A program made the position numbers and the translations under genes. The notes under the pieces are model-generated. The model did not search any database and was not told the origin of the DNA. It was given only the letters and a program-made list of their open reading frames with translations. This document shows, one piece after another, positions 11,633 to 44,220 of a stretch of 44,235 bases of DNA (its first letter is position 1; every line of letters begins with the position of its first letter). Origin of the DNA: Lentisphaerota bacterium (GTDB taxonomy: Bacteria > Verrucomicrobiota > Kiritimatiellia > PWTM01); the NCBI GenBank assembly GCA_016873715.1, contig VGWF01000019.1, forward strand, positions 1 through 44,235, in the 5' to 3' direction.

Positions 11633-11714
11633 GTTTCGACCGGATCGCCGCATCACCCTCCGCGTGAACCCATCGGATCCAGCACCCGGGGGCGGCCTTC
11701 CCGACGCGCACACG

Positions 11715-12209: not shown

Positions 12210-13948
12210 ACCCGCGCCGCCTCACCGATCTGATCGACCGGCATCTCGACGACCGCCTTGCGCCTGCGGAGCGGGCGGAACTCGAGGCGGAACTGCTGGC
12301 CTCGGCCGACGCGCGGCGGGCCTTCTGGGACCAGGCCTCACTTCACGGCCTCACCCACGAGGCGGTCCGGCTCGCGTGGAGCGACGAGGAGCCCGCACCG
12401 GCCCACGCCGGATTCTTCGAACGCATCGCCGCGTGCTTCGCACCGCCGCACCGCATCTTCGCGGTCGTATCGCTGGCTGCCGCACTGGCGGCGCTGGTGC
12501 TGGTCCTTCTGCCCGGGCGCAGCCCGCCGCCTGCCGCCGCCGGGCCGCGGTTCGCCGCCGTCGAGGGCCGGACCGAAGTGGTCCGCCGCGACGCGACGAT
12601 CGCGGTCGCGACGGGCGATGCGGTGGCCTCGGGCGATGCCATCCGCGTGGCGGACGGCGCCGGGGCGCGGCTCGCGTTCCCCTGCGGCACCGTCGTGCGG
12701 CTCGGCGGCGGAGCCTCGATCGTCGTCGGGGACGCCGACGCGCTCCGTATCGAACTCCGGGCCGGCGTCCTCGAGGCCGAGGTCAGCCCGCGTCCCGCGG
12801 ACCGTCCGATGATCGTACGCACCCCGCTCGCCCGCGCCACGGTCCATGGCACGGTCTTCGCGCTCCGGGCGGACGCGTCGTCCACCCGGCTCGATGTCCG
12901 CGAAGGCCGCGTGCGCATCGCCCACGCCCGGCGCGACAGCGAGGTCGAGGTCGGGAGTGGGGAGTACGCGGTGGCCGCGGCCGATGCCGACGTGCGGGCC
13001 GGCCTCGCGCCGTCGCGCGCAGCCCCGGCGCATCCGCGCGGCGCGGCGGAGGCGCGCGATCCGGCGTTGCATCCGTTCGCATCCGACAGTCCGTGGAACA
13101 CGTCGATCGGCTCCCGCGCGGTCTTCGAGCCCGTCCGCGCCGCCGCCTTCCACGCGGCCCCGCGGGCCGTCGTGCTGCCCGCGTCGCACGACCGCGCGGT
13201 CATCCTCGCGCGGACGGAGGACCCCGAGACGGCCGTGCTTGACCGCTACACCGGCATGGAATTGGCGCGCCTGCGCGTGCCGGCCGGCGTTCCGCCGCAG
13301 GGCCGACGGCCGGCGCCCTGCACGATCGTCGATGCCGCCACCGGCCGGGCGTGGGAGCTGGCGCAGGCGGGTCGGGACGGAACCGCGCTCGTGGCGTCGG
13401 CGTGCGAGCCGGTCGACCTGCGCGGGTCCGGCGTGCCGCCGCAGCAGAGCGGACTGACCTTCTCCGGCCTTCCGCAGATCGCGGGGATCATCCGCGCCGG
13501 CGAATGGACCGGCGGGATCCGCCACGCGCTCTCGGCGTATGTCGTCCACGCGGCCCTGTCGCGCGCGCCGTCCGGCGACGCCTTCGTCCGGCCCGCGCGG
13601 CACACGCCGATGGAGACGAAGATGCTCGATGCGATGGGCGCGGACGGAAACCTCCACTACGGGACGCTGCTGGCGCTCCCGCCGGACGTCGATCCCGCCA
13701 CGCTCGGCCTCGACCCCGCCGGCCCGGCGATGGCCATCGCCCGCGCGCTTCAGGACCACGGCGTCTACCTCGTCCACAGCTTCCGTGGCGCGGACGGCTC
13801 CGCCGCGGCCGGCTGGACGCCGCCCGCTCTCCAGCTCTTCGCCGAGGAACTCCCCGGCGGCGACCCGCACGATCTCGCCGCGGAGGTGTCCCGCCTGGTT
13901 CCGCTGCTCCGGGTGGTTGCGGACCGCGGGCTGGAGCGCGCGCCATGA
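12206..13948 (+). CDS. FecR-type anti-sigma protein fused to an unknown extracytoplasmic domain
   Basis: A 580-residue protein. The cytoplasmic N-terminus (residues 1-80; LTDLIDRHLDDRLAPAERAE) looks like an anti-sigma binding region. A single membrane span follows at about 84-103 (IFAVVSLAAALAALVLVLLP), then a FecR-like beta domain at about 113-275 (VRTPLARATVHGTVFALRAD and DVREGRVRIAHARRDSEVEV). From about residue 288 a further 290-residue domain begins with HPFASDSPWNTSIGSRAVFE and contains SGLPQIAGIIRAGEWTGGIR and FVRPARHTPMETKM. This looks like a separate secreted domain of unknown function, reminiscent of exported proteins with SPWN and RPARH motifs. It may sense a glycan outside the inner membrane. 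It is coupled by ATGA to both neighbours. Confidence 0.78.
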   Translation: MNPRRLTDLIDRHLDDRLAPAERAELEAELLASADARRAFWDQASLHGLTHEAVRLAWSDEEPAPAHAGFFERIAACFAPPHRIFAVVSLAAALAALVLVLLPGRSPPPAAAGPRFAAVEGRTEVVRRDATIAVATGDAVASGDAIRVADGAGARLAFPCGTVVRLGGGASIVVGDADALRIELRAGVLEAEVSPRPADRPMIVRTPLARATVHGTVFALRADASSTRLDVREGRVRIAHARRDSEVEVGSGEYAVAAADADVRAGLAPSRAAPAHPRGAAEARDPALHPFASDSPWNTSIGSRAVFEPVRAAAFHAAPRAVVLPASHDRAVILARTEDPETAVLDRYTGMELARLRVPAGVPPQGRRPAPCTIVDAATGRAWELAQAGRDGTALVASACEPVDLRGSGVPPQQSGLTFSGLPQIAGIIRAGEWTGGIRHALSAYVVHAALSRAPSGDAFVRPARHTPMETKMLDAMGADGNLHYGTLLALPPDVDPATLGLDPAGPAMAIARALQDHGVYLVHSFRGADGSAAAGWTPPALQLFAEELPGGDPHDLAAEVSRLVPLLRVVADRGLERAP

Positions 13949-29262: not shown

Positions 29263-30231
29263 ATGAATCTGAACGATGTCAAGGCTGGAGGGAAGCGCTC
29301 GCGCAGCTTCCTTCCATCGAGCGCGACCCCCGGCCGCACGGCCACCATGCTGGCGATCACCTACGGGGCACTCTCGCTGGCCTACATCTTCGTGTCGAGC
29401 TACCTGGCCGGCGCCCTGGCGGTGTCCAAGCTCCAGCTGACCGAGATCGAGTTCTGGAAGGGCATCGCCTTCGTCATCACGACGAGCGTGATCGTGTTCG
29501 CGCTGGCCTTCTCGATCCTCCGCCGCGTGACGGAGCGCGAGCAGGAGCTGGCGCATAACCGGCAGGCGCTGGTGGTCGCGGAGCGGCGGGCGTTGTCCGG
29601 CGTCTTCGCGGCGGCGGTCGCCCACGACATCAACAACACGCTCTCGGTCTTCCACGGCGGGCTGGACGAGCTCGCGGCGGGGGGAACGTCCGAGCCCCTC
29701 CGGAACATGCATCTGGCGTTGGATGGCCTGCAGAGGATGACCACGCAGCTCCTGCAGGCGAGCCGCGACGACGGGTTCACGGACCTGGTGGCCTCCGACC
29801 TGGCGGCGATCGTGCGCGACGCCGTCAGCTTCGGGCGCATCCATTCGCGGATCCGCCACTGCCGGATCGAGGAACGGATTCCGGCCGAGGCCCCCTGTCA
29901 CGCGCATCCGGCGCTGCTGCGGCAGATGATGCTGAACCTCCTGCTCAACGCGGCGGAGGCGACGGGCGGGACGGGGCGCATCCTCGTCATCCTGTTCAGC
30001 GGGCCGGCGGGCTACGTGCTGTCCGTCGGCGACGACGGCCCGGGCGTGCCCCGGGAGTATCTCGACCGGCTCTTCCAGCCCTTCTTCACGACGAAGCACA
30101 GCGGGACGGGACTCGGGCTGCTGTCCGTCAAGGCCGCCGCCCAGGCCCACGGGGCGGCGGTGGACTACACGATCTCCGAACTCGGCGGCGCCGGCTTCCG
30201 CGTCACGTTCCCGGCCCGGTTCAAGGACTGA
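29263..30231 (+). CDS. Orphan membrane histidine kinase
   Basis: A 322-residue sensor kinase. Two membrane spans (about 28-50 and 66-87) flank a very short external loop, so a large periplasmic sensor is absent. A short coiled linker (RREQELAHNRQALVVAERR-like, about 88-110) leads to the phosphoacceptor His H121 in AAAVAHDINNTLSVF, then the N box (MLNLLLNAAEATG), G1 box (VGDDGPGVP), F box (LFQPFFTTKHSG) and G2 box (GTGLGLLSVK). All catalytic boxes are intact. No response regulator gene is next to it in this window. It may sense membrane state or an interacting protein. Its 3' end overlaps the convergent ccsA-like gene by 11 bases. Confidence 0.88.
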   Translation: MNLNDVKAGGKRSRSFLPSSATPGRTATMLAITYGALSLAYIFVSSYLAGALAVSKLQLTEIEFWKGIAFVITTSVIVFALAFSILRRVTEREQELAHNRQALVVAERRALSGVFAAAVAHDINNTLSVFHGGLDELAAGGTSEPLRNMHLALDGLQRMTTQLLQASRDDGFTDLVASDLAAIVRDAVSFGRIHSRIRHCRIEERIPAEAPCHAHPALLRQMMLNLLLNAAEATGGTGRILVILFSGPAGYVLSVGDDGPGVPREYLDRLFQPFFTTKHSGTGLGLLSVKAAAQAHGAAVDYTISELGGAGFRVTFPARFKD

Positions 30232-31993
30232 GCGGCGGCCGCGCCTGCGGCGCGCCCGTCCGGATCAACCCCGCCATGACCGCCACGAACGCGCCCTCGA
30301 CCGCCGCGATCGCCATCAGCCAGAACGCCGCGCCGGAGGTGAAGCCGTAGGAGTGAAGCCCCACGCCGAGCAGGTTGACGCCCTGCCAGGCGACCGCGAC
30401 GACCACGATCCCGAGGATCGCCCCCGCCGCCATGCCGGCGTCGCCGATGATCCGGGGCCCGCGCGCGTGCAGCACCGCCGCCGTCCACAGCACGATCAGC
30501 AGCGCCCCGTTCTCCTTGGGATCCCAGCCCCAGAAGCGGCCCCACGACTGGTCCGCCCACACCCCGCCGAGCATCGTTCCGAGGAAGGTGAAGACCAACC
30601 CCAGGCCCAGCAGTCCCCGCACCGCGCGCGCCACGCCCGCCGCGGCATCCGCGCCCTGCCGCCAGTGCTTCACGAGCTGGACGTGCGCCGCCGCGCCGGC
30701 CATCAGGCATCCGGCGTAGCCGACCATGATCGTCAGCACGTGGACGGTGAGCCAGAAATTGGAGTCGAGCACGGCGACCACCCGCTGCATCGTGTCGCCG
30801 TCGAGTTCGTACCGCACGGCCACGGCCAGCAGCACCGCCGCCGTCGCCCCGCCGGACAGCAGGCCCAGCCCGTCGCGCCGCGCGCGCTCGACGCCGAGGC
30901 CGATCAGCGCGCTGCACCACGCGACGAAGACGAAGGTCGAGTAGAGGTTCGTCACCGGGGGCCGGCCCATCACGAACGTGCGGAGCGCCAGCCCCGCCGT
31001 ATGGACCAACAGGGCCAGCCCGACCAGCACCGCGGCCGCGGCGGCGGTCCGGCGGCGACGCGGATCGAGCGCCACCCAGAAGCCGAGGATGCCCGCCACG
31101 AGGTAGGCCTGCAGCGCACGCGAGAACGGCCGCAGGCGGCCGAGCGTTTCCTCGCCCCCCAGCCGCGCCCCCGCCTTCGGATCGTCGACACCCCGCAGCA
31201 CCGCCGCGCGGACCTCCTTCGCGGCCGCCGTGAACGCCGCATCATCGCGGGCCCGCCACGCGGCGCGCATCGTCTCCCACCCGGCGGACACCGCGCGGGC
31301 GGCTTCGTCCGTCTCGGTGGCGGCCTCCGAGGGCGCCAGCCACGCGCCGTGCCCGCCGTCGCGCGGCAGCAGGCCCGGGTGGTCGCCGCGGGAGAACGCC
31401 GCGTAGAGGGCGACGGCCGAGCCGAGTTGCACGAGGTCCCGGTCGGCCGGCGTGCGGTCCGCCGGCTTCAGTTCCATCGCGCGGGTCGTCAGATCGTGCA
31501 GCTTCGCCAGGACCGGCTCGAGCTCCGCGTAGGCCACGCGCCGCCGGGGCTTGTCGGTGGCGATCCCCAGCGCGTCGAAGGTGTCGGGGTGCGAGACGAG
31601 GAAGACGGCGTCGTTCGTCGTCGCGTCGGATTCGAACAGCGCCCGCGCCAGCCACAGCGACGCCGGCCCGCCCTGCCACGTCCCCCGCCCCGCCATCTGG
31701 AGCATCGCGACCCGCGCGTAGGCCGACATCGGCATCGGCCGCCCGCCCTCCAGGACCGGAATCGACCCGAAGGCGCGCAGGTCGAGCGGCGACTGCGGCG
31801 CCGCCCGCGCCGCGAGTGCGGTCAGGGCCGCAAGGACGACGGCGCCGCGAACACCGAACATCGAACATCGAACACCGAACATCGAAATAAGGTCCCGAAT
31901 CCGCGCGCGGAGCCCACTGTGGTCCGCCCGAACGCCGACGTCTGACGTTCGGTGTTCGATGTTCGATGTTCGATGTTCGGAGTTCTCCCTCAT
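30221..31993 (-). CDS. ccsA: Cytochrome c biogenesis protein CcsA with large N-terminal extracytoplasmic region
   Basis: About 590 residues if started at the ATG that overlaps the resB stop (31993). The N-terminal region up to about 340 contains a signal-like segment (RGAVVLAALTALAARAAPQS, about 49-68) and a helical extracytoplasmic domain. From about 340 to the end is the CcsA/CycK membrane domain, with the haem-binding Trp-rich motif in SWGRFWGWDPKENGALL and conserved His in VLTIMVGYAG-adjacent VHV and LLVHTAG. With ResB it forms the system II haem-delivery and ligation complex. Residues 1-45 are encoded by heptamer repeats (31849-31985), so the true start may be one of the ATGs at 31882 or 31861, which would give a tidy signal peptide MFGVRGAVVLAALTALAARA. 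Confidence 0.85.
   Translation of the reverse strand: MRENSEHRTSNIEHRTSDVGVRADHSGLRARIRDLISMFGVRCSMFGVRGAVVLAALTALAARAAPQSPLDLRAFGSIPVLEGGRPMPMSAYARVAMLQMAGRGTWQGGPASLWLARALFESDATTNDAVFLVSHPDTFDALGIATDKPRRRVAYAELEPVLAKLHDLTTRAMELKPADRTPADRDLVQLGSAVALYAAFSRGDHPGLLPRDGGHGAWLAPSEAATETDEAARAVSAGWETMRAAWRARDDAAFTAAAKEVRAAVLRGVDDPKAGARLGGEETLGRLRPFSRALQAYLVAGILGFWVALDPRRRRTAAAAAVLVGLALLVHTAGLALRTFVMGRPPVTNLYSTFVFVAWCSALIGLGVERARRDGLGLLSGGATAAVLLAVAVRYELDGDTMQRVVAVLDSNFWLTVHVLTIMVGYAGCLMAGAAAHVQLVKHWRQGADAAAGVARAVRGLLGLGLVFTFLGTMLGGVWADQSWGRFWGWDPKENGALLIVLWTAAVLHARGPRIIGDAGMAAGAILGIVVVAVAWQGVNLLGVGLHSYGFTSGAAFWLMAIAAVEGAFVAVMAGLIRTGAPQARPPLSP
31849..31985. repeat. Heptanucleotide repeats in inverted arrangement across the ccsA 5' end
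   Basis: Left arm 31849-31886 consists of GAACATC/GAACACC units; right arm 31947-31985 is its reverse complement type (GTTCGATGTTCGATGTTC). The arms match over 38 bases with few differences and enclose a 60-base centre. Possible start codons of ccsA (31993, 31882, 31861) lie within or next to the arms. Confidence 0.85.
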
Positions 31994-33081
31994 GTCCGCC
32001 GCCTCCCCGGCAGGTAGTGGACCACCATGCCGGCGAACATGATGAGGGTGGCGGCATAGGGCAGCAGGCGGGCGTGGTTCTCGCTGACGGCCAGCACCGA
32101 GACTTCCGCGCCGCCGTGGGGGTTGTCCATGTAGGAGGACTGGAAGAACGTGAACGCGCCGTGGCGGTACGGCCGGTTCATCGAGATCGTCACCTCGCGC
32201 GGGCCGCCGCCCGCATCGACCTCCACGCGGCTGGAGAAGCTTCGCGGGATGCTGCTGTTCGGGTGGAACTTCCTCTCGAAGTCCAGAAGCCTCATCGTCA
32301 CCGGCAGCGGCAGCCGCGCCCGGCGGACGTGCAGGTGCGCCTCGCCCCCGCCGCCGAGCCCCATCCCGACCGCCGGCCCCTCGCCGAGCAGCACGCTGCT
32401 CCCGCCGGCGGCGCGCAGCACGACCGCCGGACGCGCCCTGCGCGGATCGCCCGCCGGACGCGCCTCGGTCACCTGCTCCGGCGCCGGCGTCTCGCCCGCC
32501 TCCGGCGGAACGGATGCCGCCCGGACGACGCGCACCACCTCGACCGATTCCGCCGCGCCGGGGATCGCGAGCGACTGCCCCGGCCGCAGGGCGCGGAGGT
32601 CGTGGGCACGGACGTCGCGTCCGCCCGCGGCGCCGGGCGTCATCACCGCCAGCTCCCACTGCGTCTCCGATACCGACATCGACGCGGACTCGCCCTCCGC
32701 CAGCACCAGCGTCGTCTCGCGCCCGAACCGGCGGCTCAGGATGCCGCCGAGGAACAGGACCACGAGGCCGCCATGGACGATCCAAAGCCCGAGCCAGCGC
32801 GGCGACGCGCCGAACCGCGTCAGCATCGATGCGAACAGGTTCGCGAGGAAGACGACCGACGTCCCCTGGACGCCCGGCAGCGGCACGGCCCCGCCGGCCA
32901 GGAAGAACCACGAGTGGAAGAACCGCTGCACCGCGCCGTGGAGGCCGTGGACGGGGTCCGCCTGGACCAGCGTCCCCCAGACCGTCAGCACGGCGAACCA
33001 CAGCAGGCACGCGATCGTGACGTGCGGCGCGCCGGCCGCGCGGAGCACCCGCCCGGCCCGCGAGGCCCGCCATCCCGACAT
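31990..33081 (-). CDS. resB: Cytochrome c biogenesis protein ResB (CcsB)
   Basis: A 363-residue membrane protein with three N-terminal spans (about 15-40, 55-75 and 95-125; ACLLWFAVLTVWGTLVQADP, SWFFLAGGAVPLPGVQG, GLWIVHGGLVVLFLGGIL), a large extracytoplasmic domain containing NRPYRHGAFTFFQSSYMDNP, and a final span (LLPYAATLIMFAGMVVHYLP). These are ResB features; it partners CcsA in system II haem attachment to c-type cytochromes. The ATG at 33081 is chosen over 33099 because GGAGGA lies six bases upstream. The stop overlaps ccsA by ATGA. No c-type cytochrome gene is in the window. Confidence 0.87.
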   Translation of the reverse strand: MSGWRASRAGRVLRAAGAPHVTIACLLWFAVLTVWGTLVQADPVHGLHGAVQRFFHSWFFLAGGAVPLPGVQGTSVVFLANLFASMLTRFGASPRWLGLWIVHGGLVVLFLGGILSRRFGRETTLVLAEGESASMSVSETQWELAVMTPGAAGGRDVRAHDLRALRPGQSLAIPGAAESVEVVRVVRAASVPPEAGETPAPEQVTEARPAGDPRRARPAVVLRAAGGSSVLLGEGPAVGMGLGGGGEAHLHVRRARLPLPVTMRLLDFERKFHPNSSIPRSFSSRVEVDAGGGPREVTISMNRPYRHGAFTFFQSSYMDNPHGGAEVSVLAVSENHARLLPYAATLIMFAGMVVHYLPGRRRT

Positions 33082-33184
33082 GGTTTCCTCCGGGGACATG
33101 AGCCCCAGAGACTACGCCCTCCCGCACATTCCGCCAACTGCGTCCGCGCGACGCCCGCACGGGGGGCGCCGAACCGGACGCGCG

Positions 33185-36100
33185 TCACGCGGCGCGGCGC
33201 GCCGGGCCGAGCCAGAGGCGCGCGGCGAGACCTAGCGCCGCCGCCAGAGCCGCAAGGATCCCCGCGGTCGCGAGCGCCCCGCCCCACGGGCCGCCCGCGG
33301 CGCGGAACGTCACGAGCATCTCGGCGCCGGGCTGGATCTGGAGGTCGCGCCGGAAGACCATCCGGCGGCCCTGCACGGGCACCGTGATGCGGATCGGCCG
33401 GATCTCCGCGCCGGCGGCCTGCTGCTGCTCGATCAGCTTCTCGGCGACGACGCCGAGGCTCTCGCTCTCCTTCGCGCCGAGGCTGGCCTCGACCTTGCTC
33501 GCGTAGTCGGCGCTCCAGTTGCCGTCGTTGAACCCGCGCAGCTGCTCGCGGCCGGAATCGTCGACCGCGTTGTTCGCCGCCTTGAGCGCGTTGCGCCGGT
33601 TGGCGAGCACGACCACCGCCTGCTGCTTCGCGAGGTTGCGGAACTGGATCCGCGCGTCCTCGTTGAGGTCCTGCTGACCCTGCGACCAGGCCACCGCGGA
33701 CTCGAACGCCTGGCGCGCCTCGACCGTCTGCCCCTTGCGCCACAGCTCCGCGCCCTGCTCGAGCACCTGGACCGCCATCCCGTTGTTGGCGGCGATGAGC
33801 TTCTTGTTCATCCGGTCGTAGTCCTCGGGCCGGAACGCGACCGCCTCGACCGCGCCGCCCGGCGCCGGGACGAGCGTCCCGCCGAAGCCGAGGTAGCGGT
33901 ACTGCGGCGGCAGGTAGAGCTCCCACTCGATGTCCGCCAGCGGCAGATTGAACGACGGCCCGCGCACCTCGCGCCGCGCCCACAGCCCGCCCGCCCCGCC
34001 GCGGTGGCCGACGATCACGTCGACCGACGCCGCCCCGGTCCCGCCCCGCTCGAGCGGGATCAGGTGCCGGCCGTTCTCGAACAGCGGCGACACCGCGCGC
34101 CCGTCGAGGAACACGCTCCACACCTCGCCGCCCTCGGGCGCCGTCATCTCGAGGAACCGCAGCGTGCCGGGATCGAGCGTCAGCATCGTGCGCGTCACCA
34201 TCTGGCCGTCGTCGGACACGACCGACGTCAGCCGCGCCGACCGCACGCGCCCGGGCAGCACCTCGGCCGCCGCGTGACGGAGGATCGACAGCGGCAGCGG
34301 CGACGAGAGGTCCGTCGCCCGGTAGCACAGCACCGCGCCGGACAGGTCGCCCGCGCCGAACGACGCCGGGATCCCGCGCGCGTCCTCCGCGCGCAGCCCC
34401 GCGGGGGTCTCGCCGGGCTTCACCTGCAGCCGGCCGCCCGCGAAGATCACGATCCACGCCTTCTCCGCGTCCACGCCCTCCGCCCGCAGCGGCACGACCG
34501 CCACGCCGTTGGTCGTCGGGTCGAAGGCGTCCTGGAACGTCACGTCGAGCGCGTAATCGGTCTCGACCTTGCCGTGCAGTTCGACCTCCCACAGGCCCGC
34601 CGCGGCGTCGGTCTCCTGCACGCGCGCGATGTTGCGGCCGGCGATCATCAGCGGCAGGCCCGGACGCGGCGCCTTCAGCCGGAAGAGCTTCACGCCGGCG
34701 TGCTCGATGCCGTAGCGCACGTGCGCGCGGACCCGCAGCAGGCCCTCGGAGACGTCGACGCGGTGGACGAGGTCGCTCTTGACCACCGGCTGCAGCACCT
34801 CGGTCTTCAGCGTCACCGCCCAGTCGGGCCGCAGCAGCCGGAACGCCGCGCAGCCGGGCTGCTGGATGCCGAGGTCGCGCGGGTTGACCTCCGTCACGCC
34901 GTCGCGCGAGGCCGTCACGAACCGCAGCCCGCGCTCGCCGCTGACGACCAGCGTCCCGGCGTGCTTCGCGGCGCCGTCGACCGCCAGCCGCGGCACGCGC
35001 AGCTCGGGCTCGACCCGCTTCTCGGCGCGGCTGAGGACGAGGTTCAGCTGCGTGTCGCCCAGCACCTGCCGCGCGAAGTTCACCGTCACGCCGCGCGCGG
35101 CGCCGTCGCGGACCTCGTCCCAGTGGCTGACGTCCTTCCCGGTCAGCGCATCGACATCGAAGCCCTCCGGCACCGCCAGCTTCACCGAGAAGACCCCGGC
35201 GCGGGAGATCTGCACCGCGAGCCGCGAGGTCAGCACGACGCGCTCGTCGGAGACGTCCACCTGCGCCTCCTCCGTCACCCGCACCTCCGGCAGCACGCGC
35301 ACCGCCGACACCTTCGCCGACGCCGGGAGCTGGTGGTAGCGGTAGGCGCGACGGACCTCCGGCACCGCGGCCGCCGAGGCGGTCTTCAACGCCATCTGCG
35401 CGACCTCGGCCGGGAAGTCGGACACGTTCATCAGGCTCATGCCCGGCGTCTCGCCGGGCGACACCTGCACCTCGGGCGTCGACGCGACCGCCAGCGTGCC
35501 GCGCTGGCGCGAGGCGCCGACCACCTCCGGCTCGCGCATCTCGGCCTCGTAGGGCAGCCCCTCGAACGCGCGCTGCGCGACCACCGTCAGCGCGTACGTC
35601 CCCGCCGCCGGCTTCTCGAGCAGCGCGTCGATCACCCGCGTCGCCGGATCGAATCGCCACGTGCCGAGGCCCGCGCCGGCCACCGCCGTCACGCTGACGC
35701 CCTCGGGCATCTTCAGCTGAAGCGCCTGCAGCTCGCCCTGGGCGATCTGGTAGCGGATCGAGTGCGTGATCCCCGCCAGCCCCGGCTGCAGCACCGCGCA
35801 GGTGTTGATCTCGGCGAAGAACACCGCCTTCTCGGTCTCGGTCTTGCGCTGCCGCGGCCGCCACGCGATCGACATCGCGCTCGCGGGCCCGGCGACGAGC
35901 TTCGCCACCGTGCCCCCGCCCTCCTCGCGGCTCTCCAGCCAGACCGACTGGGCCGACTCGACCTCCCAGCCCGCGGTCGGCAGCGCCAGCGTCACGCCGT
36001 TCTCCACGCACTCGGGGAGCCACAGGTCGACGTGCCACGCGCCGTCCTTCTCGACCACCGGCACGAGGTTCGTCAGCGAGACCCGGTACTCGCCCGCCCG

Positions 36101-39100
36101 GTCGGCGTGCAGCATCACGCCGGCCTCGGACGGAACGAGCCGCAGGTTCGACGACCCCAACGCGGCGCCGGTCAGCACGCGCGGCGCGGGCAGCACCAGC
36201 AGGTTGGTCGACGTCCCGGCCTTGAACGCGATCATCATCGCGATCCGCGCGTTCCGGGGCTCGGGTTTCGCGACGTCCGGGGCCTCGACCGAAACCTCGA
36301 CGCGTTGCACGAGCGCGGCGGCCGGCGCGGCCGGCGGCGTCGGCGCCTGCACGGCCTGCGCGGCCTGCGCGGGCGGCGCAACATCGGCGCGCGCCGCGCC
36401 GAGGGCCGCGAGCATCAGCGCCACCGCCGCGCCCGCCGCAGCGGACGCGGAGGGCGGCGGGGCCGGCGGATCGGACGGAGGCACGGGCGGCGGAATGCGC
36501 GCGGCGAAGGAGTCGCCCGCGGGCGGCTCGGGCGGCGGCTGCACCGCGGCGCGACGCCGGCCGGCGTTGCGCATCCACCGCAGCCAGGCGACCAGCGGCG
36601 ACAGCGCAAGCGCAGCGCCCAGCGCGGCGGCCGTCCACGGCAGCGCCACCGGGATCGACGCCACGGCCCACGCGAGGAGCGCCAGCCCCGCCGCCCAGCC
36701 GGCGATGCGCCGGCCGCGGCGCGCGCCGCGACGGACCAGCACCACGCCCGCCACGAGCGCCGCCAGCACCGCCGCGCCCATCCGCGACGCCGCGAACGCA
36801 TCGCGCGTCACCGCGAGCGACACGGCAAGACCGCCGTCGGCCAGCGTCACCGGCTTCGTGAACTCCCACTGGCGGTCGGCCGCGAAGCCGGCCGGAACCT
36901 CGGACCCGCCGGGGCCCCACGCATCGGTGCCGAGCATGAGGAGGACGACCAGCGCGGCGCCGATGACGGCCGACACCCAGGTCGTCCACGCCAGCGGCCG
37001 GTGCCGGCCGATGTTGAACGCGATCGGCGCGCCGGCGAACGCGATCACGACGCCGAGAAGGATCCACCCGAAGCCGACGCGCGCCAGGCCGCGGAAGAAC
37101 CCGCCGAGGTGCATCGCAAGCCCGGCCGGGCCGGACGGCGGACGCGACGGCGCCATCATCGTCCCGCCGCCGGCCGCGATGTGGAAGCCCTCCGGCGTCG
37201 TGAACGTCCACCGCGCGAACACCGTCCGCGTGTCGAACGCCGGCGCCGCGAACGCGAGCCGGTTGCGCCAGCCCAGCTTCGGGGTCTGCTGCGCGTAGGT
37301 CAGGCCGATCCGCAGCGGCTGGTTCGGGTCGAGGCGTCGCTCGACCGGCACCAGCACCGCGCCCTCGCCGCGGTCCAGCGCCTGCACGGCCGTGCCGTCG
37401 ACCGTCGCGGACCACAGCGCCGCGCCGGGCGGCAGCTTCACGCCGAGGTACTGCTGCGACGTGTTCTTCACGAAGCTCGTGATCTCCGTCACCGCCTCGC
37501 CGTCGCGGCTGAGCCGCGTCTCGAGCGTCGTGTGGTCCGCCACCTGCCCCACCGGCGCCAGCGTCGGCAGCCGCCGCACCTTGACGACCGCCTCGTGCGG
37601 CCCGCCGACGTACTTCGACGCGTGGAGCACGCGGTCGGTGACGAGCAGCGCGTATTCCCGCGGCAGCTCCTCCGGCGTGATCGGCAGGATCGCCGGGTCG
37701 CGCCGGCTCTCGCCCGCGAACGCCAGGCTCGCCGAGCCGGCCAGGACGAGGTAGCCCGTCTCGCTCTCGGGCCCGATCGTCCGGATGCCGCCGAGTGCGA
37801 CCTCGCCGCCCTCGAACGCCGCCGGCTGCTGGTAGGTGACGAGCAGCGTGTAGTCGCCGTGCACCTTGTCCTGCAACTGCACCGTCCACACGTCGCCGTC
37901 CTGCTGCCGCGCGCGGATGTCGCGGCCGGTGATCTCGACATTCCGCAGCCCGGCCGGGATGCGCACGCGCAGCGTCCGGGTCGGCGCGCCGGCGATGAAG
38001 TAGGTGATGGAGCAGCTCCCGAAGAGCCCGCTCTCGCCCAGCGTCGCCAGGTGGAACAGCTCCGCGTGCAGCGCGGGCTCCTCGCGCTCGATCGTCGCGG
38101 CGAGCGCCCAGTCGCCGTCCTTGAACCGCCACGCGCGCTGCGCGCCGGGCACCGCGACGGGCAGCGAGCCGGTGTGCATCTCGCGCAGGTTGGTCGCCGT
38201 GGCGGGCTCGAGCCGCACGCCCTTCTCCGCGCGCAGCACGACGTGGCCGCGCTCGGTGCGGGCGCCGGTCACGCGGACCTTCGGCACGTCGAACATCAGG
38301 TCCGCATCCTTCAGCGTCCGCTCGAGCCGCAGCTCGACCAGCCCGCGGCCGGACAGCTCCTGCTTGAACACCACGCGCACCTTCCGCACGCCGCCCTCGT
38401 CGCGGATGTCGCTGTCGCCGACGTTCTGGCCGGTGACCTGCGCGACGGTCCACGCCGGGTCGGTCTCGATCGTGATCTCGCGGGCCGGGGCGTCGCGGAC
38501 GTCCAGCTCGATCGCCGCGGCAATCGAGAGGTCGTTGTCGGCCAGCGACACGATCAGCCGCTCCTCGGCGTGCACCGCCGTGACGATGTCGTCGGCGCTC
38601 ATCTGGAGCTGCACCGGCAGGTTCGCAAACTGGTAGGCGTAGGCGCTGCGCGTCGGCGCGGCGCGGCGCGGAATGCCCTCGCTCTTCACCTCCGGCAGCG
38701 CGGCGCGGTCGATCTGCGTCAGGCCCGCGGCCTTCGCGACCACCAGCTTGATCGCGCCGTCCGCCCCGGCGAGCAGGAAGCCGCTCGCGCGGATCACGTC
38801 GCGCGGCGCGGGGATCGCGAGGTCGAACGTCGCCGGGAACGCGGGCAGCGCGGTCTCGCCCTCGATGCCGAGCTGGTACACCTTCTCCTGCGGACGGCTC
38901 AGCGCCACCGCCAGCCGCCGCGCGCCGCCCTCGCCGGGCTCGATCCGCCATTCCCGGATGTCGATGCCGCGGACCTGCGTCACGTTGAGGCCGGCGGGCA
39001 GGTCGATCGAAAGCGCCTGCAGCGAGCCCTGCACCACGCGGTAGGTCAGCAGCGAGTCGATCCGCAGCGCCCCGACGCCGGCGACGGCGATGGTATGGAG

Positions 39101-39688
39101 GTCGCACGACGCGGCGAGGTCGCCGGTCAGCTTTGCGACCTTCGGCCGCCAGCGCATGTCGAGCGGACTGCCGGCGCCGAGGAAGGCCGTCGCGACCGTC
39201 CCGCCGTCGGGACCGGGGGCGCTCTCGACGTTCAGCGCGCCGTCGAACTTCAGGTCGAGGTCGGCGCGGTCGCTGGCGACGCGCACGCGGCGGATCGTCG
39301 CGTCGGGCAGCTCGAGTCGCGCGCGGCGGAGGTCGCCCTCGGCCGCGGCCTGGACCGCGAAGCGGAACGCGACCTTGTGCAGCCCGCGGCGGTCGAACGC
39401 GAGGATGTAGTCGCCGGCCCTGCGCTCGAGCGTCACGCCGCGCGGCAGCGCGGGCGACGCGGCGTCGCCGGCGAGCAGTGAGAGCATGCCGCGCGCGACG
39501 CGCAGCTCGACGCCGGCCTTTCGGACGTCCGCCTCGAAGGAGACGCCGACCGTCAGGTTGTCGCCCTTGATCTCGCCCGCGACCGTGAGCTCGCGGATCT
39601 CGAGGTCCGGCCGGTCGTCCCGCGCCTGCGGCGTCACGCACGACACCAGCATCGCCGCCATCGCCCACAAGGCCAGGTTCGTCTTCAT
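33185..39688 (-). CDS. Giant 2167-residue lipoprotein-like envelope protein, two related halves
   Basis: I do not recognise a named family. The N-terminus (MKTNLALWAMAAMLVSCVTP) is a lipoprotein signal with C17. Residues about 25-850 are a chain of beta-rich domains. Several membrane spans follow (about 866-920 and 963-1041), then a Pro-rich linker and an internal signal-like hydrophobic stretch (AAVALMLAALGAARADVAPP, about 1084-1104). A second beta-rich half runs to about 2120, and a C-terminal span lies at about 2137-2160. A helical segment with NKKLIAANNGMAVQVLEQGA precedes the end. Residues 212-250 (RVVQGSLQALSIDLPAGLNV...REWRIE) and 1309-1347 (QIAQGELQALQLKMPEGVSV...GTWRFD) are clearly related, indicating duplication or fusion of two similar genes. 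It is the third gene after an ECF sigma factor and an anti-sigma/VWA fusion. A GGAGA site precedes the ATG at 39688. Confidence 0.8.
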   Translation of the reverse strand: MKTNLALWAMAAMLVSCVTPQARDDRPDLEIRELTVAGEIKGDNLTVGVSFEADVRKAGVELRVARGMLSLLAGDAASPALPRGVTLERRAGDYILAFDRRGLHKVAFRFAVQAAAEGDLRRARLELPDATIRRVRVASDRADLDLKFDGALNVESAPGPDGGTVATAFLGAGSPLDMRWRPKVAKLTGDLAASCDLHTIAVAGVGALRIDSLLTYRVVQGSLQALSIDLPAGLNVTQVRGIDIREWRIEPGEGGARRLAVALSRPQEKVYQLGIEGETALPAFPATFDLAIPAPRDVIRASGFLLAGADGAIKLVVAKAAGLTQIDRAALPEVKSEGIPRRAAPTRSAYAYQFANLPVQLQMSADDIVTAVHAEERLIVSLADNDLSIAAAIELDVRDAPAREITIETDPAWTVAQVTGQNVGDSDIRDEGGVRKVRVVFKQELSGRGLVELRLERTLKDADLMFDVPKVRVTGARTERGHVVLRAEKGVRLEPATATNLREMHTGSLPVAVPGAQRAWRFKDGDWALAATIEREEPALHAELFHLATLGESGLFGSCSITYFIAGAPTRTLRVRIPAGLRNVEITGRDIRARQQDGDVWTVQLQDKVHGDYTLLVTYQQPAAFEGGEVALGGIRTIGPESETGYLVLAGSASLAFAGESRRDPAILPITPEELPREYALLVTDRVLHASKYVGGPHEAVVKVRRLPTLAPVGQVADHTTLETRLSRDGEAVTEITSFVKNTSQQYLGVKLPPGAALWSATVDGTAVQALDRGEGAVLVPVERRLDPNQPLRIGLTYAQQTPKLGWRNRLAFAAPAFDTRTVFARWTFTTPEGFHIAAGGGTMMAPSRPPSGPAGLAMHLGGFFRGLARVGFGWILLGVVIAFAGAPIAFNIGRHRPLAWTTWVSAVIGAALVVLLMLGTDAWGPGGSEVPAGFAADRQWEFTKPVTLADGGLAVSLAVTRDAFAASRMGAAVLAALVAGVVLVRRGARRGRRIAGWAAGLALLAWAVASIPVALPWTAAALGAALALSPLVAWLRWMRNAGRRRAAVQPPPEPPAGDSFAARIPPPVPPSDPPAPPPSASAAAGAAVALMLAALGAARADVAPPAQAAQAVQAPTPPAAPAAALVQRVEVSVEAPDVAKPEPRNARIAMMIAFKAGTSTNLLVLPAPRVLTGAALGSSNLRLVPSEAGVMLHADRAGEYRVSLTNLVPVVEKDGAWHVDLWLPECVENGVTLALPTAGWEVESAQSVWLESREEGGGTVAKLVAGPASAMSIAWRPRQRKTETEKAVFFAEINTCAVLQPGLAGITHSIRYQIAQGELQALQLKMPEGVSVTAVAGAGLGTWRFDPATRVIDALLEKPAAGTYALTVVAQRAFEGLPYEAEMREPEVVGASRQRGTLAVASTPEVQVSPGETPGMSLMNVSDFPAEVAQMALKTASAAAVPEVRRAYRYHQLPASAKVSAVRVLPEVRVTEEAQVDVSDERVVLTSRLAVQISRAGVFSVKLAVPEGFDVDALTGKDVSHWDEVRDGAARGVTVNFARQVLGDTQLNLVLSRAEKRVEPELRVPRLAVDGAAKHAGTLVVSGERGLRFVTASRDGVTEVNPRDLGIQQPGCAAFRLLRPDWAVTLKTEVLQPVVKSDLVHRVDVSEGLLRVRAHVRYGIEHAGVKLFRLKAPRPGLPLMIAGRNIARVQETDAAAGLWEVELHGKVETDYALDVTFQDAFDPTTNGVAVVPLRAEGVDAEKAWIVIFAGGRLQVKPGETPAGLRAEDARGIPASFGAGDLSGAVLCYRATDLSSPLPLSILRHAAAEVLPGRVRSARLTSVVSDDGQMVTRTMLTLDPGTLRFLEMTAPEGGEVWSVFLDGRAVSPLFENGRHLIPLERGGTGAASVDVIVGHRGGAGGLWARREVRGPSFNLPLADIEWELYLPPQYRYLGFGGTLVPAPGGAVEAVAFRPEDYDRMNKKLIAANNGMAVQVLEQGAELWRKGQTVEARQAFESAVAWSQGQQDLNEDARIQFRNLAKQQAVVVLANRRNALKAANNAVDDSGREQLRGFNDGNWSADYASKVEASLGAKESESLGVVAEKLIEQQQAAGAEIRPIRITVPVQGRRMVFRRDLQIQPGAEMLVTFRAAGGPWGGALATAGILAALAAALGLAARLWLGPARRAA

Positions 39689-39698
39689 GTCCGTTCTC

Positions 39699-39728
39699 CA
39701 TGGCGCCGACGGAGCGGCGCCCTCCAGG
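39699..39728. repeat. Dispersed 30-bp repeat, copy 2
   Basis: Same element and orientation as 6541-6570, differing at one base. It lies 11 bases upstream of the giant gene start codon, so it is probably within its leader or promoter region. Confidence 0.75.
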
Positions 39729-39857
39729 TCTTCGGTCCCAGGCAGTGTTCCGAGGGTGTTGGGGCCGTTCCGGCTTCCAGCCCGTCGGGTTCGTTGAACG
39801 TTCTGACCGGTTTCGCTCATCGCGTGGTCATGGAATTGTCATGGAGGTGAAAAGAAA

Positions 39858-39942
39858 GTGTCGAGTGTCGAGCGGCGAGTGTCCCGGAATGTCCGCCGCC
39901 CCTCGCCCCTCGACCCTCGTCCCTCGCCCCTCGCCCCTCGAC
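39858..39942. repeat. Two heptanucleotide arrays (GTGTCGA and CCCCTCG types)
   Basis: GTGTCGA-GTGTCGA-GCGGCGA units (39858-39885) are followed by six CCCCTCG-type units (about 39898-39942). The second set is roughly the reverse complement of GGCGAGG-like units, so the whole may fold back. It lies in the 269-base gap between the VWA protein gene and the giant gene. Confidence 0.75.
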
Positions 39943-39957
39943 ATCTGAAACCTCGCC

Positions 39958-42900
39958 TCAGTAGGGCAACCCCTGCGCCGTCTGGGCCAGGCGCACCAGC
40001 TCCTGGACCTGCGGATCGATCGAAAGCTCCATCGCCACCGGCCGCAGCACGCCCAGCGCGTCGGCGAGATCGCGGCCCTGCGAGAAGGTGTGGGGGCTCA
40101 GTCGCAGCAGCTCGGCGAACTCCGCGACGCCGGCGGCGAGACGGAAGCGCGGGGCGGCGGCGGCGAAGTCGCGCGTGAAGTCGCGCGCCGTGATGCGCCG
40201 CTCGATCTCCTCGACGCGGCCGGTCTCGGCGTCGCGGTAGCGGACGCGGACCGTGCCGATCCACTCGGAGGCGATGCCCTCGAGCCGGACGTCGTAGAGC
40301 GCCGTCACCGACTGCCCCGAGCCGACCTCGCCCGCGTCGACGGTGTCGTCGCGGAACTGCTCCTTCGTCAGCGCGCGGTTCTCGTAGCCGAGCTGGCGCC
40401 AGCGCTGGACGCGGCGCGGGTTGAACTCGACCTGGATCTTCACGTCCGACGCGATCACGTGCAGCGTCGCGGCGAGGTTGTCGACGAGCACCCGCCGCGC
40501 CTCCTCCTCGGAGTCGATGAAGGTGTAGGCCCCGTCGCCCTTGTCCGCGAGGCTCTCCAGCATCGCGTCGTCGTACGCGCCGGTGCCGAAGCCGAGCACG
40601 GTCAGCCGCACGCCCTGCTTCCGGTGCGCCTCGACGGTCGCGAGGATCGCGGCGGCCTCGGTCGCGCCGAGGTTGGCGACGCCGTCGCTCATCAGGATCA
40701 CCCGGTTCGACGCGCCGCTGCGGAAGGCCTTCGCCGCGACCTCGTAGCCGAGCTTCAGCCCGCCCTCGAGCTGCGTCGAGCCGACGGTCTCCATCGAGTC
40801 GATGACCTTGAGGATCTGCTCCTTCTGCGCGACCGGCGTCGGCTCGAGCCGCAGCGCCGCCTTCGAGCCGAACTGGACCACCGCCACGCGGTCCTCGGGG
40901 TCGAGCTGGTCGACGAGCAGCCGCAGCGAGCGGCGGATCAGGCCGATGCGGTCGTCGGTCTGCATCGAGCCCGACGTGTCGATCACCAGCGTCAGGTTCG
41001 ACGGAACGTGCTGGTCGCGCCCGATCCGCCGGCCCTTGATGCCGATGCGGAGGACGTCCATCGACGTCCGGAACGGCGACGGCGCGCCGTCCACATGGAT
41101 CGCGAAGGCGCCGCGCGCCGGCGGCGCGTAGTCGTAGTCGAACGCGTTGACAAACTCCTCCGTCCGCACCGACTCCGGCTCCGGCCGCTTTCCCTCCAGG
41201 ATCGACCGCCGCGCCATCGTGTACGACGCCGTGTCCACGTCGATCGAGAACGTCGAGAACGCGTTCTCCGCCGCCTCCACCACCGGGTTGAACCCGGCGG
41301 GCTTGAAAGTGGGCGCGACAGGGTGTCCAGCCGGCTCCTCCCGGGCCTCTTCCAGTTTCTTCTCCATGTCGGCGAGGACCGCCACTTCCTGGCCGGCCGT
41401 GTCGAGCCCGGTCTTTTGGGACTGGGGCTTGGACTCCGGTTGGGCGGCGAGGGCATTGACGAGCACGCCGGCGTGGACGGTGCCGTCAGGGGCCGGCATC
41501 GACTCGCGTCCGCTTTCGCTGAGAACGGAGAGCGCCTCGTTCCTCACGAGCGGCTGCGGGTTCTTCGCCGCGGCGCCGTCGCCGTCGGTGTCGACGGCTT
41601 GCGTGTCGCTCTTCCGCCGCAGCTCGTCGACCGGTGCGCGGCTGCCCCGGCGCGCGTCGGTTGCGTCCCAGCGGTCGCCGAGTTGCTCCTTCATGTCCTG
41701 CGCGGCGTACCGGTATCCCATCGCAACGTTGCGGTCGCGCTCATCCGATTCGTTCGTGCGCACGATGCCCGACCTGGTGACGGCATCGTCCATGGTGGCG
41801 GTCGCGGCCTGCTTCTTTTCCGTCGCGACTCCGCTCAGGTTGAGCGCTTCGCCGGCCTGCGCCTTGCCTTCGGCCAGAACGCGGCGCGCGCGGGCGCCGG
41901 CCTCGCGGGCGGCCTCGACCTGGCGGTCGAAGAGCGAGACGTCCGCGGCCCCGCCGCCACCGTAGCCGGCGGCGCCGCCCATCGTGACGAACTCGCCGCG
42001 GCTGATGCCCGCGTCGTTCACGGGCTTCGCGGTGACAATCTCGGTGACCGAAGGCTGGACCGGGTACGGCTTCGTGGCCATCCGCTCCTCCGCGGTCGCC
42101 GCGGGTGCATCCGCCGCGGATGCCTGTCCCAGCTCGCGCAGCCTCGAGCGGCTGGAGACGGCCGCGCCGCTGGAGAGCAGGGTGCCACCGTTCAGGGCCA
42201 ACTCTGCGGTCGGGGCGGCACCCGGCCCTTCCGATGCGCGGTTGCTGTACCGGTCGATGCCGTCGACCGTCAGCACGCCGGCGCCGGCTTTCGCAAGGGC
42301 CGGCTCTGCGGCCGGGGTGGCACCCGGCCCTCCCGCTGAGCTGGCGCCGCTCCATTTCTTCCCGTCGACCGCGAGCGTGCCGGCGCTGATGGCGGTGGCA
42401 CCCGGCCCGACCGGAGGCTTGCCGGCGGACGGAAGCCCCGGCGCGAGATCGAGGTTCTTGTCACCCCGAGAGAGCGCGAACCATCCGGCGGACGTGTCCT
42501 TCGCCTTCTCTTCAACGGAAAACCGCGTCTTGGCGGCGTCGGTGCCGGCGACGTTCTGCTTCGGCTCGCCGATGATGATCCGCGGCTGCGGGGTGCCCGC
42601 GGGCTCGAGATTCGGGACCTTCGCCCCGACCGGCGTGCCGACGAACATGGGCTTGGGGATCTCGCGCTTGAGCTCCTCGCCTTCCTTGTACTTGTATTCG
42701 TCCCCTCCGGACGCCGGGGCGGTCTTCGCCGGAGCGGCGACGACCGGCGGCGCGGCCTGGGCGAGGGAGCGCGCCGGTGCGGCGGACGCGGGCATCGGGA
42801 CCGGCGTCGAGACGGGCTCGGCGCCGCGCATGAGGCGTCCGAGCACGGGCACGTCGCCCGGCGCGGGAAGCTCGGCCGGCGTGGCGGGCGCCGATGCGAC

Positions 42901-43515
42901 CGCGGGTGGGGCGCCCGCGGCACGCCCTTCGCCGGCGACCTGGGTGTCCCTGAAGTAGTAGGCCCCCGCCTCCGCGCCCTCTCGGCCCCGAACGCCGCCG
43001 TCGGCCGGCGCAGCCGGCGGGGTGCTGGCGAACAGATCGGCCACCTCGGCGGTCCCGAACCGGCGGACCGAGTTCTCGGCCGGTGCGGCGAAGGGGTCGG
43101 CGGCAGAGGTCTCGGCTTCCAGCCGGGCGAGTTCGACCGACCGGGCCGTGCCACCGGAGTACTGAATCGCCGGCATCATCAGCGCGGCCAGGATCAGGGC
43201 CGGGACGACGACGAAGATCGCGGCGCGGGCGAGCGGGACGAGCCAGGCGTCGAGCCAGATCGTCGTCCGCGACGGCCGGGCGGCGAGGATCGCGGCGCGG
43301 CGGGCGGAGTCGAGGCGCTCGGGGACGGCCGGGGACGCTGCCAGGGCGCCGCGCAGCAGGTCGAGGGTGGTCGCCAGTTCCTGCGCAGACGCCCGGCAGC
43401 CTTCACACCGGGCCAGGTGGTCGCGGATCGCCGCCGCGCGGGCCGCGGGCAGGTCGCCCGTCAGGTACGCGGTCAGATCCGGTTCGATCTTCGGACATTC
43501 GGGATGCGGTTTCAT
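39958..43515 (-). CDS. Zinc-finger anti-sigma / YfbK-type von Willebrand A domain fusion
   Basis: A 1185-residue protein. Residues 1-70 contain an anti-sigma zinc-finger motif H33-x3-C37-x2-C40 (RDHLARCEGCRAS). One membrane span lies at about 90-115 (ARAAIFVVVPALILAALMMP). About 600 residues of Pro/Ala/Gly-rich, mostly disordered sequence follow, including a tandem repeat (about 365-440) and a YPVQPSVTEIV motif (484-494) shared with the secretin-like protein. The C-terminal 400 residues match YfbK-type proteins: the N-terminal segment AENAFSTFSIDVDTASYTMA, a VWA domain with an intact metal site D846-x-S-x-S (VIDTSGSMQ) and SDGVANLGA, and the YfbK C-terminal region. It should hold the sigma factor inside while the VWA part faces the periplasm. 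It starts one base after the sigma gene stop. Confidence 0.85.
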   Translation of the reverse strand: MKPHPECPKIEPDLTAYLTGDLPAARAAAIRDHLARCEGCRASAQELATTLDLLRGALAASPAVPERLDSARRAAILAARPSRTTIWLDAWLVPLARAAIFVVVPALILAALMMPAIQYSGGTARSVELARLEAETSAADPFAAPAENSVRRFGTAEVADLFASTPPAAPADGGVRGREGAEAGAYYFRDTQVAGEGRAAGAPPAVASAPATPAELPAPGDVPVLGRLMRGAEPVSTPVPMPASAAPARSLAQAAPPVVAAPAKTAPASGGDEYKYKEGEELKREIPKPMFVGTPVGAKVPNLEPAGTPQPRIIIGEPKQNVAGTDAAKTRFSVEEKAKDTSAGWFALSRGDKNLDLAPGLPSAGKPPVGPGATAISAGTLAVDGKKWSGASSAGGPGATPAAEPALAKAGAGVLTVDGIDRYSNRASEGPGAAPTAELALNGGTLLSSGAAVSSRSRLRELGQASAADAPAATAEERMATKPYPVQPSVTEIVTAKPVNDAGISRGEFVTMGGAAGYGGGGAADVSLFDRQVEAAREAGARARRVLAEGKAQAGEALNLSGVATEKKQAATATMDDAVTRSGIVRTNESDERDRNVAMGYRYAAQDMKEQLGDRWDATDARRGSRAPVDELRRKSDTQAVDTDGDGAAAKNPQPLVRNEALSVLSESGRESMPAPDGTVHAGVLVNALAAQPESKPQSQKTGLDTAGQEVAVLADMEKKLEEAREEPAGHPVAPTFKPAGFNPVVEAAENAFSTFSIDVDTASYTMARRSILEGKRPEPESVRTEEFVNAFDYDYAPPARGAFAIHVDGAPSPFRTSMDVLRIGIKGRRIGRDQHVPSNLTLVIDTSGSMQTDDRIGLIRRSLRLLVDQLDPEDRVAVVQFGSKAALRLEPTPVAQKEQILKVIDSMETVGSTQLEGGLKLGYEVAAKAFRSGASNRVILMSDGVANLGATEAAAILATVEAHRKQGVRLTVLGFGTGAYDDAMLESLADKGDGAYTFIDSEEEARRVLVDNLAATLHVIASDVKIQVEFNPRRVQRWRQLGYENRALTKEQFRDDTVDAGEVGSGQSVTALYDVRLEGIASEWIGTVRVRYRDAETGRVEEIERRITARDFTRDFAAAAPRFRLAAGVAEFAELLRLSPHTFSQGRDLADALGVLRPVAMELSIDPQVQELVRLAQTAQGLPY
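42194..42410. repeat. Imperfect tandem repeat (~100 bp unit) inside the VWA protein linker
   Basis: Copies begin near 42194, 42295 and 42388 (the last partial). Each has a GC-rich core (GGTGGCACCCGGCCC type) followed by a segment coding for VDG. The protein unit is roughly GPGATPAAEPALAKAGAG then VLTVDG, about 33 residues. The core itself is partly palindromic (GGGCCGG ... CCGGCCC). Confidence 0.65.
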
Positions 43516-43516
43516 G

Positions 43517-44074
43517 TCACAGCACTCCCGCCCGCTTGAGGTTCGCGGACAGTTTTCTGACGGCGTGGTGGAGGAGGCAGCCGACGTTGCCGACGGTGCG
43601 GCCGGTGGCGCGGCTGATGTCCTGGTAGGAGAGGCCCTCCTGGAGGCGGAGCACGAGCACCTCGCGTTCGCCCGGGGCCAGCCGGGCGAGATGCTCGAGG
43701 GCGAGGCGGGTGCGTTCGGCGGGATCGTCGGTCGCGGGCAGGGTCACGGGCGGGCCGGCGTCCTCGACCGCCTTCTCGTGGAGCTTGCGAAGCCGTTCCT
43801 CGCGGCGGATGAAGTCGACGGCCGCGTTGTGGGTCGTGCGGTAGAGCCAGGGCAGGATGTGGTCGCCCTCCGGCCCGCCGGGGCCCCAGCGGCGGTGGAG
43901 GCGGATGAAGGTCTCCTGCACGACGTCCTGCGCCGCGTCCGCGTTGTTCAGCAGGCGCGCGGCGTACCGCAGCAAGGCTGTCTCGTGCAGGGCCATGACG
44001 TCCTCGAACGCCGGCGGTTGGGCCGGTTCTCCGGGTTTCGGTCCGCTCGTCTCGTCGCGTGCTTCGTCCGCCAT
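43517..44074 (-). CDS. ECF-type sigma factor of the VWA/giant-protein operon
   Basis: A 185-residue sigma factor. Region 2 is seen in LLRYAARLLNNADAAQDVVQ followed by ETFIRLHRRW and HILPWLYRTTHNAAVDFIRR; region 4 in LAPGEREVLVLRLQEGLSYQ followed by the helix-turn-helix DISRATGRTVGNVGCLLHHA. The ATG at 44074 has a GAGGGGTG ribosome site six bases upstream; an earlier in-frame ATG at 44110 would overlap the -10 region and is rejected. Its partner is the anti-sigma/VWA fusion that begins one base after its stop. Promoter recognition sequences for this sigma cannot be deduced from one operon. Confidence 0.9.
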   Translation of the reverse strand: MADEARDETSGPKPGEPAQPPAFEDVMALHETALLRYAARLLNNADAAQDVVQETFIRLHRRWGPGGPEGDHILPWLYRTTHNAAVDFIRREERLRKLHEKAVEDAGPPVTLPATDDPAERTRLALEHLARLAPGEREVLVLRLQEGLSYQDISRATGRTVGNVGCLLHHAVRKLSANLKRAGVL

Positions 44075-44109: not shown

Positions 44110-44115
44110 CTTATA
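44110..44115 (-). promoter_or_regulatory. Possible -10 box (TATAAG) of the sigma/VWA operon
   Basis: TATAAG on the minus strand, 35 bases before the ATG at 44074. No convincing -35 hexamer is found at 17 bases, so it may be an alternative-sigma promoter, perhaps autoregulated. Confidence 0.35.
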
Positions 44116-44145
44116 CGCCTCCCGGGACCGCTCTATTCGGAAAAA

Positions 44146-44220
44146 GTGGCGAGTGTCGGGTGGCGAGTGGCGAGTGGCGGGTGACGAGTGACGGGTGGCG
44201 GGTGGCGAGTGGCGGGTGGG
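44146..44220. repeat. Heptanucleotide tandem repeat, about 10.7 units
   Basis: Units GTGGCGA, GTGTCGG, GTGGCGG, GTGACGA and GTGACGG follow one another without interruption, upstream of the sigma factor operon promoter region. The shorter array at 16646-16670 is the same family on the other strand. The window ends in a G-rich tract. Confidence 0.9.

What the first reader, a model, noticed from the sequence alone, without database searches (positions are those of the whole stretch)
33185..44074. Sigma factor, anti-sigma/VWA fusion and giant two-half lipoprotein: candidate undescribed envelope system
Seen: three tightly ordered minus-strand genes, an ECF sigma factor, a protein whose zinc-finger anti-sigma motif and YfbK-type VWA domain (intact DTSGSM) are joined by a membrane span and a long linker, and a 2167-residue lipoprotein-like protein. 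Known: anti-sigma zinc fingers sequester ECF sigma factors and VWA domains bind protein ligands through a metal site. Inference: the VWA domain outside the inner membrane may monitor a ligand, possibly the giant protein, and relay this to sigma release, forming a one-polypeptide envelope sensor.
Basis: partly seen in the sequence, partly recalled or inferred. Interest (0 to 1): 0.8.

Follow-up and report, generated by a model that had tools for sequence, protein, structure and literature searches.

The report
Sigma/VWA-anti-sigma/giant membrane protein cassette
Three neighbouring genes that occur together across the bacterial phylum Verrucomicrobiota appear to form a self-controlled sensing unit: a gene-switch protein, a membrane protein that probably holds it back and carries a metal-dependent binding domain outside the cell membrane, and a giant membrane protein built from about ten repeats of a fold known from aminopeptidases and ribophorin I, with no counterpart in protein-family libraries.

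Summary
An ECF sigma gene, a zf-HC2/TM/linker/VWA-YfbK gene and a giant gene (2167 aa) lie in that order in 56 non-redundant loci from three classes of Verrucomicrobiota; flanking genes show no recurring partner in the loci listed. VWA domains next to giants form their own clade (100/100 branch), apart from ordinary YfbK-type VWAs, which here also usually follow an ECF sigma. The VWA metal site (DxSGS plus D) is invariant in 72/72. The giant has no Pfam or NCBIfam family. It is less a lipoprotein than a probable 7-TM inner-membrane protein with two homologous periplasmic arms of about five modules each, folding like the N-terminal domain of M1 aminopeptidases and ribophorin I. A promoter-like motif precedes sigma in 46/61 loci (about 4% of random windows); its strict form gave 10 sites in 14 genomes, 7 at this operon, which suggests autoregulation and a small regulon. 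Best reading: an autoregulated sigma/anti-sigma switch whose VWA sensor probably contacts the giant. That contact, and what is sensed, remain inference. New variant of a known kind.

The parts
44113..44137 (-). predicted sigma-dependent promoter (AATA-N16-CGTAT)
   Evidence: motif AA[GT][AG]-N15-17-[CT]GT[CA][TA] precedes sigma in 46/61 related loci against 3.5 expected in shuffles and 3.75% of random windows; window instance found. Consensus match only, no transcript data.
43517..44074 (-). ECF sigma factor (region 2 + region 4)
   Evidence: Pfam/NCBIfam hits; tree places giant-linked sigmas apart from those of ordinary YfbK pairs
39958..43515 (-). anti-sigma/VWA fusion: zf-HC2 43393-43497, TM 43165-43221, linker ~41308-43164, vWF_A 41050-41307, VWA 40501-40998, YfbK_C ~39976-40470
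   Evidence: Pfam; single TM in 56/59 and HxxxCxxC in 40/59 relatives; metal site DxSGS and D invariant in 72/72
33185..39688 (-). giant 2167-aa membrane protein with two homologous arms
   Evidence: 34-member alignment with 140 positions conserved in at least 85%; halves homologous, E 4.5e-87; no Pfam family shared by the members except weak TPR matches in a few
37103..39625 (-). N arm, about five beta modules resembling the M1 aminopeptidase N-domain / ribophorin I
   Evidence: AlphaFold2 pLDDT 88.7; VIA-align Z 11-12, rmsd 3.5-4 A to M1 N-domains at model 1-162, 170-347, 348-515; ribophorin I Z 14.3 over 349-706, rmsd about 21 A across the two modules
36392..37072 (-). central membrane segment, about six TM helices
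   Evidence: hydropathy in the window and relatives; positive-inside pattern puts both arms in the periplasm
33254..36331 (-). C arm, about five beta modules, the last with a helical TPR-like insertion (33413-33829)
   Evidence: AlphaFold2 pLDDT 85.6; last module matches M1 N-domain Z 14.3, rmsd 2.9 A; Ost1 Z 15.8 over 514-1017; TPR-like sequence match
33221..33277 (-). C-terminal TM helix
   Evidence: hydropathy; present in most relatives

Best explanation
The three genes form an autoregulated envelope-signalling cassette. Steps shown by sequence: sigma, anti-sigma/VWA and giant genes are kept together; the metal site of the VWA is invariant; the giant is, by prediction, an inner-membrane protein with two periplasmic arms of M1-N/ribophorin-I-like modules; a shared promoter-like motif sits before sigma. 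Steps inferred: the zinc-finger (or, in relatives, zinc-less) domain holds sigma at the membrane; the periplasmic VWA domain, through its metal site, docks on the giant (or on something the giant presents); a change in that contact frees sigma, which mainly transcribes its own operon and so restores the amount of VWA and giant. The giant would then be both the monitored partner and the main product of the switch.
For: Order sigma-VWA-giant in 56 non-redundant loci, with 6 more where the contig ends before sigma and 3 without sigma upstream. Flanking genes show no recurring partner in the loci listed (its output was cut). 45 of 48 genomes with a core giant also carry a YfbK_C gene against 58 of 241 without one (Fisher 2e-20, genomes treated as independent). 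VWAs beside giants form one side of a 100/100 branch; in G160 two VWAs stand in tandem and the one next to the giant belongs to the giant clade. 16 of 18 canonical-pair sigmas form a clade with none of 67 giant-linked sigmas. MIDAS invariant in 72/72. Promoter motif 46/61 against 3.75% background; the strict form gave 10 hits in 14 genomes, 7 of them by position at the cassette's own sigma gene. Topology.
Against: No physical interaction was tested; no complex prediction was available. Ordinary sigma/VWA-YfbK pairs occur without a giant, so the VWA need not sense the giant. In two genomes (G114, G086) VWA and giant are on separate contigs with room between, and a few giants (G124, G149, G176) stand without the cassette. 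The promoter pattern was chosen from the same loci it was scored on, and loci are related by descent. A strict pattern can miss regulon members, so the small regulon is a lower bound.
Confidence: 0.55

Rival explanations
1. The VWA senses another ligand (a cell-surface, matrix or stress signal), and the giant is only the output: a scaffold or adhesive envelope protein made when sigma is released.
For: Ordinary sigma/VWA-YfbK pairs exist without a giant; the giant is the last gene of the cassette; modular beta arms resemble extracellular scaffolds such as integrin legs by Foldseek.
Against: VWAs beside giants form their own clade and keep to giants, which fits matched partners better than a generic sensor.
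Confidence: 0.3
2. The giant is a periplasmic folding or secretion scaffold, working like ribophorin I near the translocon, and the sigma/VWA pair is a quality-control stress response for exported proteins.
For: Modules match ribophorin I/Ost1 best among multi-domain proteins (Z 14-16); the last module carries a helical insertion with TPR-like sequence.
Against: Fold likeness only; sequence identity about 10%; no Ribophorin_I Pfam match; no secretion genes recur next to the cassette in the loci listed.
Confidence: 0.1
3. The giant is a passenger: a co-transcribed structural protein with no part in signalling, kept by operon inheritance.
For: Solitary and split relatives of the giant exist without sigma or VWA.
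Against: The pairing persists across three classes while flanks change, and phylogeny of VWA follows giant linkage.
Confidence: 0.05

Closest known systems
ECF sigma factor with membrane zf-HC2 (class I) anti-sigma factor
   Same: adjacent genes, region 2 + 4 sigma, predicted cytoplasmic zinc-finger domain, single TM, promoter-like motif before sigma
   Different: the periplasmic part is a long linker plus vWF_A-VWA-YfbK_C with an invariant metal site, and a giant membrane protein is the third gene
YfbK family (PF12450-PF00092-PF12034)
   Same: all three domains present in order; metal site intact
   Different: fused to an anti-sigma domain and TM; giant-linked members form a separate clade and score lower on YfbK_C (105.6 bits for the best piece here against up to 261 in the phylum)
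M1 aminopeptidase N-terminal domain and ribophorin I/Ost1
   Same: module fold: Z 11-14, rmsd 2.9-4 A per module; ribophorin I Z 14-16 over two modules
   Different: about ten modules in one chain, membrane segment in the middle, no HEXXH in 33 of 34 giants, no sequence-family match

Membership tests
ECF sigma factor | sigma-70 regions 2 and 4 only | tested here: met
   Sigma70_r2 and r4 hits, about 185-aa protein
class I anti-sigma factor | zinc-binding anti-sigma domain next to its sigma gene, before a TM | tested here: met
   zf-HC2 above cut-off, adjacency, one TM; 19 of 59 relatives lack the zinc motif (one of these, L169, is cut short)
class I anti-sigma factor | binds and inhibits the cognate sigma | not testable with these tools
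   needs an experiment
YfbK/VWA | vWF_A-VWA-YfbK_C with intact MIDAS | tested here: met
   Pfam above cut-off; DxSGS and D invariant in 72/72
M1 aminopeptidase | catalytic gluzincin domain with HEXXH | tested here: not met
   no HEXXH in 33 of 34 giants and no peptidase Pfam hit
ribophorin I | Pfam Ribophorin_I sequence match | tested here: not met
   none listed for any of 34 members up to E 0.1
ribophorin I | part of an oligosaccharyltransferase complex | not tested
   no OST partner genes were searched for
bacterial lipoprotein | lipobox at the N-terminus | tested here: met
   LVSC in the window protein, but in only about 5 of 34 relatives

The most novel reading that the evidence does not exclude
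A bacterial envelope receptor with integrin-like logic: a MIDAS-bearing VWA domain on one membrane protein engages a long multi-beta-module partner on another, and the contact is read directly by an ECF sigma factor that controls the pair's own operon.
Probability: 0.2. Interest if true: 0.85.

Novelty: new variant of a known kind. Interest (0 to 1): 0.62.

Why it matters
It describes a conserved protein family of about 2100-2400 residues that has no entry in the libraries searched, gives it a predicted fold and topology, and ties it to a specific regulator. If the VWA-giant contact is real, it would be a new way for a bacterium to couple a metal-dependent adhesion-type domain to transcription. 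Cultured Pontiella sulfatireligans carries the cassette (L099), so it can be tested.

Tried and rejected
Lipoprotein as the defining feature of the giant: rejected, lipobox in few relatives. ResB/CcsA genes downstream as part of the unit: rejected, flanks vary. M1 peptidase activity: rejected, no HEXXH. Plasmid searches found nothing. Promoter pattern TGAAGRT-N12-VMVACGTMT was built with a spacing one base too long and told nothing. Literature: the papers listed were not seen to describe this fusion; only three were opened (term search), and an ECF reclassification paper was not held. Structure matches: Foldseek ranks integrin alpha ectodomains first for the N arm with high rmsd; treated as a likeness of layout only. 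Motif in front of the giant: 9 of 80, only slightly above background, so no second promoter is claimed.

Full report
Check of the observation. The sigma factor, the zf-HC2/TM/VWA-YfbK protein and the 2167-aa giant are present as described. Two details change. The giant has about six central and one C-terminal TM segment in the window and most relatives, with charges that place both arms in the periplasm, and a lipobox is not a shared trait. Its two halves are homologous (E 4.5e-87 over 801 columns) and each contains internal repeats of roughly 175-180 residues.

Synteny. A search for YfbK_C in 289 genomes of the phylum found 103 with a match. I fetched 40 loci, chosen because their YfbK_C match was divergent and their frame long, and compared all ORFs: sigma, VWA and giant lie in order in most of them. 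With the loci of a scan of 84,980 species genomes (the named hits are Verrucomicrobiota in the NCBI or GTDB sense, including cultured Pontiella sulfatireligans) and further regions, 65 non-redundant loci have VWA next to giant; 56 of them also have sigma upstream, 6 end at a contig edge, and 3 lack sigma upstream. Neighbouring genes beyond the three show no recurring partner in the loci listed; the output of that call was cut, so some loci were not read.

Distribution. A profile of the C arm matches 62 of 289 genomes, 48 of them with more than 500 bits; 45 of these 48 also have a YfbK_C gene, against 58 of the other 241. More distant relatives occur as adjacent genes of about 1180 and 2440 residues, or alone, without sigma or VWA nearby.

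Phylogeny. Of 93 VWA domains, those beside giants fall on one side of a 100/100 branch (65 of 71 rows; of the other six, four lie at contig ends and two are real separations), ordinary YfbK-type VWAs on the other. One ordinary-type VWA counts as beside a giant only because it stands in tandem with a giant-type VWA, in G160. Ordinary YfbK genes are themselves preceded by an ECF sigma at 18 of 20 loci examined. Sigmas of ordinary pairs form their own clade (16 of 18, local support 0.94) with none of the giant-linked ones; the two exceptions are Pontiellaceae-related loci.

Structure. AlphaFold2 models of both arms are confident locally (pLDDT 88.7 and 85.6; pTM 0.51 and 0.43, so the arrangement of modules is not settled). 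Single modules match M1 aminopeptidase N-terminal domains (Z 11-14) and pairs match ribophorin I/Ost1 (Z 14-16, with rmsd near 20 A because the two modules are set at another angle). The catalytic motif is absent, and no Pfam family is shared by the 34 members except weak TPR matches in a few.

Promoter and regulon. A bipartite motif precedes sigma in 46 of 61 loci; dinucleotide shuffles gave 3.5 on average (maximum 11 of 61 in 200), random windows of the same loci 3.75%, regions before the giant 9 of 80, and regions before ordinary-pair sigmas 7 of 18. The pattern was read off the same loci, so these figures overstate its independence. A strict form searched in 14 genomes gave 10 sites, 7 by position at the cassette's sigma gene; 5 genomes had none. 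This suggests, without proving, that the operon is the main target.

Mechanism. Shown: gene order, domains, invariant metal site, topology by prediction, motif. Inferred: sigma binding by the N-terminal domain, VWA-giant contact, release of sigma, feedback. I give the whole chain 0.55; an output-only role for the giant 0.3; a ribophorin-like quality-control role 0.1; a passenger 0.05.

Literature. Searches of the held library showed no paper that I recognised as describing a VWA/anti-sigma fusion or this giant. I judged most of the listed papers from titles and opening lines of abstracts, and looked inside only three: PMC7406223, PMC12057145 and PMC7356697, by term search. The library lacks most subscription papers, so this is weak evidence of novelty.

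Noticed in passing
window 31848-31886, 31947-31985, 39897-39940, 44145-44219: Short tandem arrays with a 7-base period (CGAACAT, GTTCGAT, CGCCCCT, AGTGGCG), the last two in the gaps before the giant and before sigma; a few similar arrays occur in related loci.
   Followed up: partly
L072 (G160) 11870-16330: Two anti-sigma/VWA genes in tandem between sigma and giant; the first belongs to the ordinary YfbK clade, the second to the giant clade.
   Followed up: partly
L180-L189: Distant relatives of the giant as two adjacent genes (about 1180 and 2440 aa) with no sigma or VWA nearby; several begin with a motif like YVPYEEL...VFLPYEEF.
   Followed up: partly
window 30221-33099: ResB-like and CcsA-like cytochrome c assembly genes directly downstream of the giant, not seen beside it in the other loci listed.
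   Followed up: partly
window 11502-13948 (+): A second ECF sigma gene followed by a FecR-domain gene, a separate sigma/regulator pair.
   Followed up: no
L044 15131-17152: In G239 another sigma and a short zinc-finger anti-sigma gene lie just downstream of the giant, while only a weak or short sigma hit lies before the VWA.
   Followed up: no
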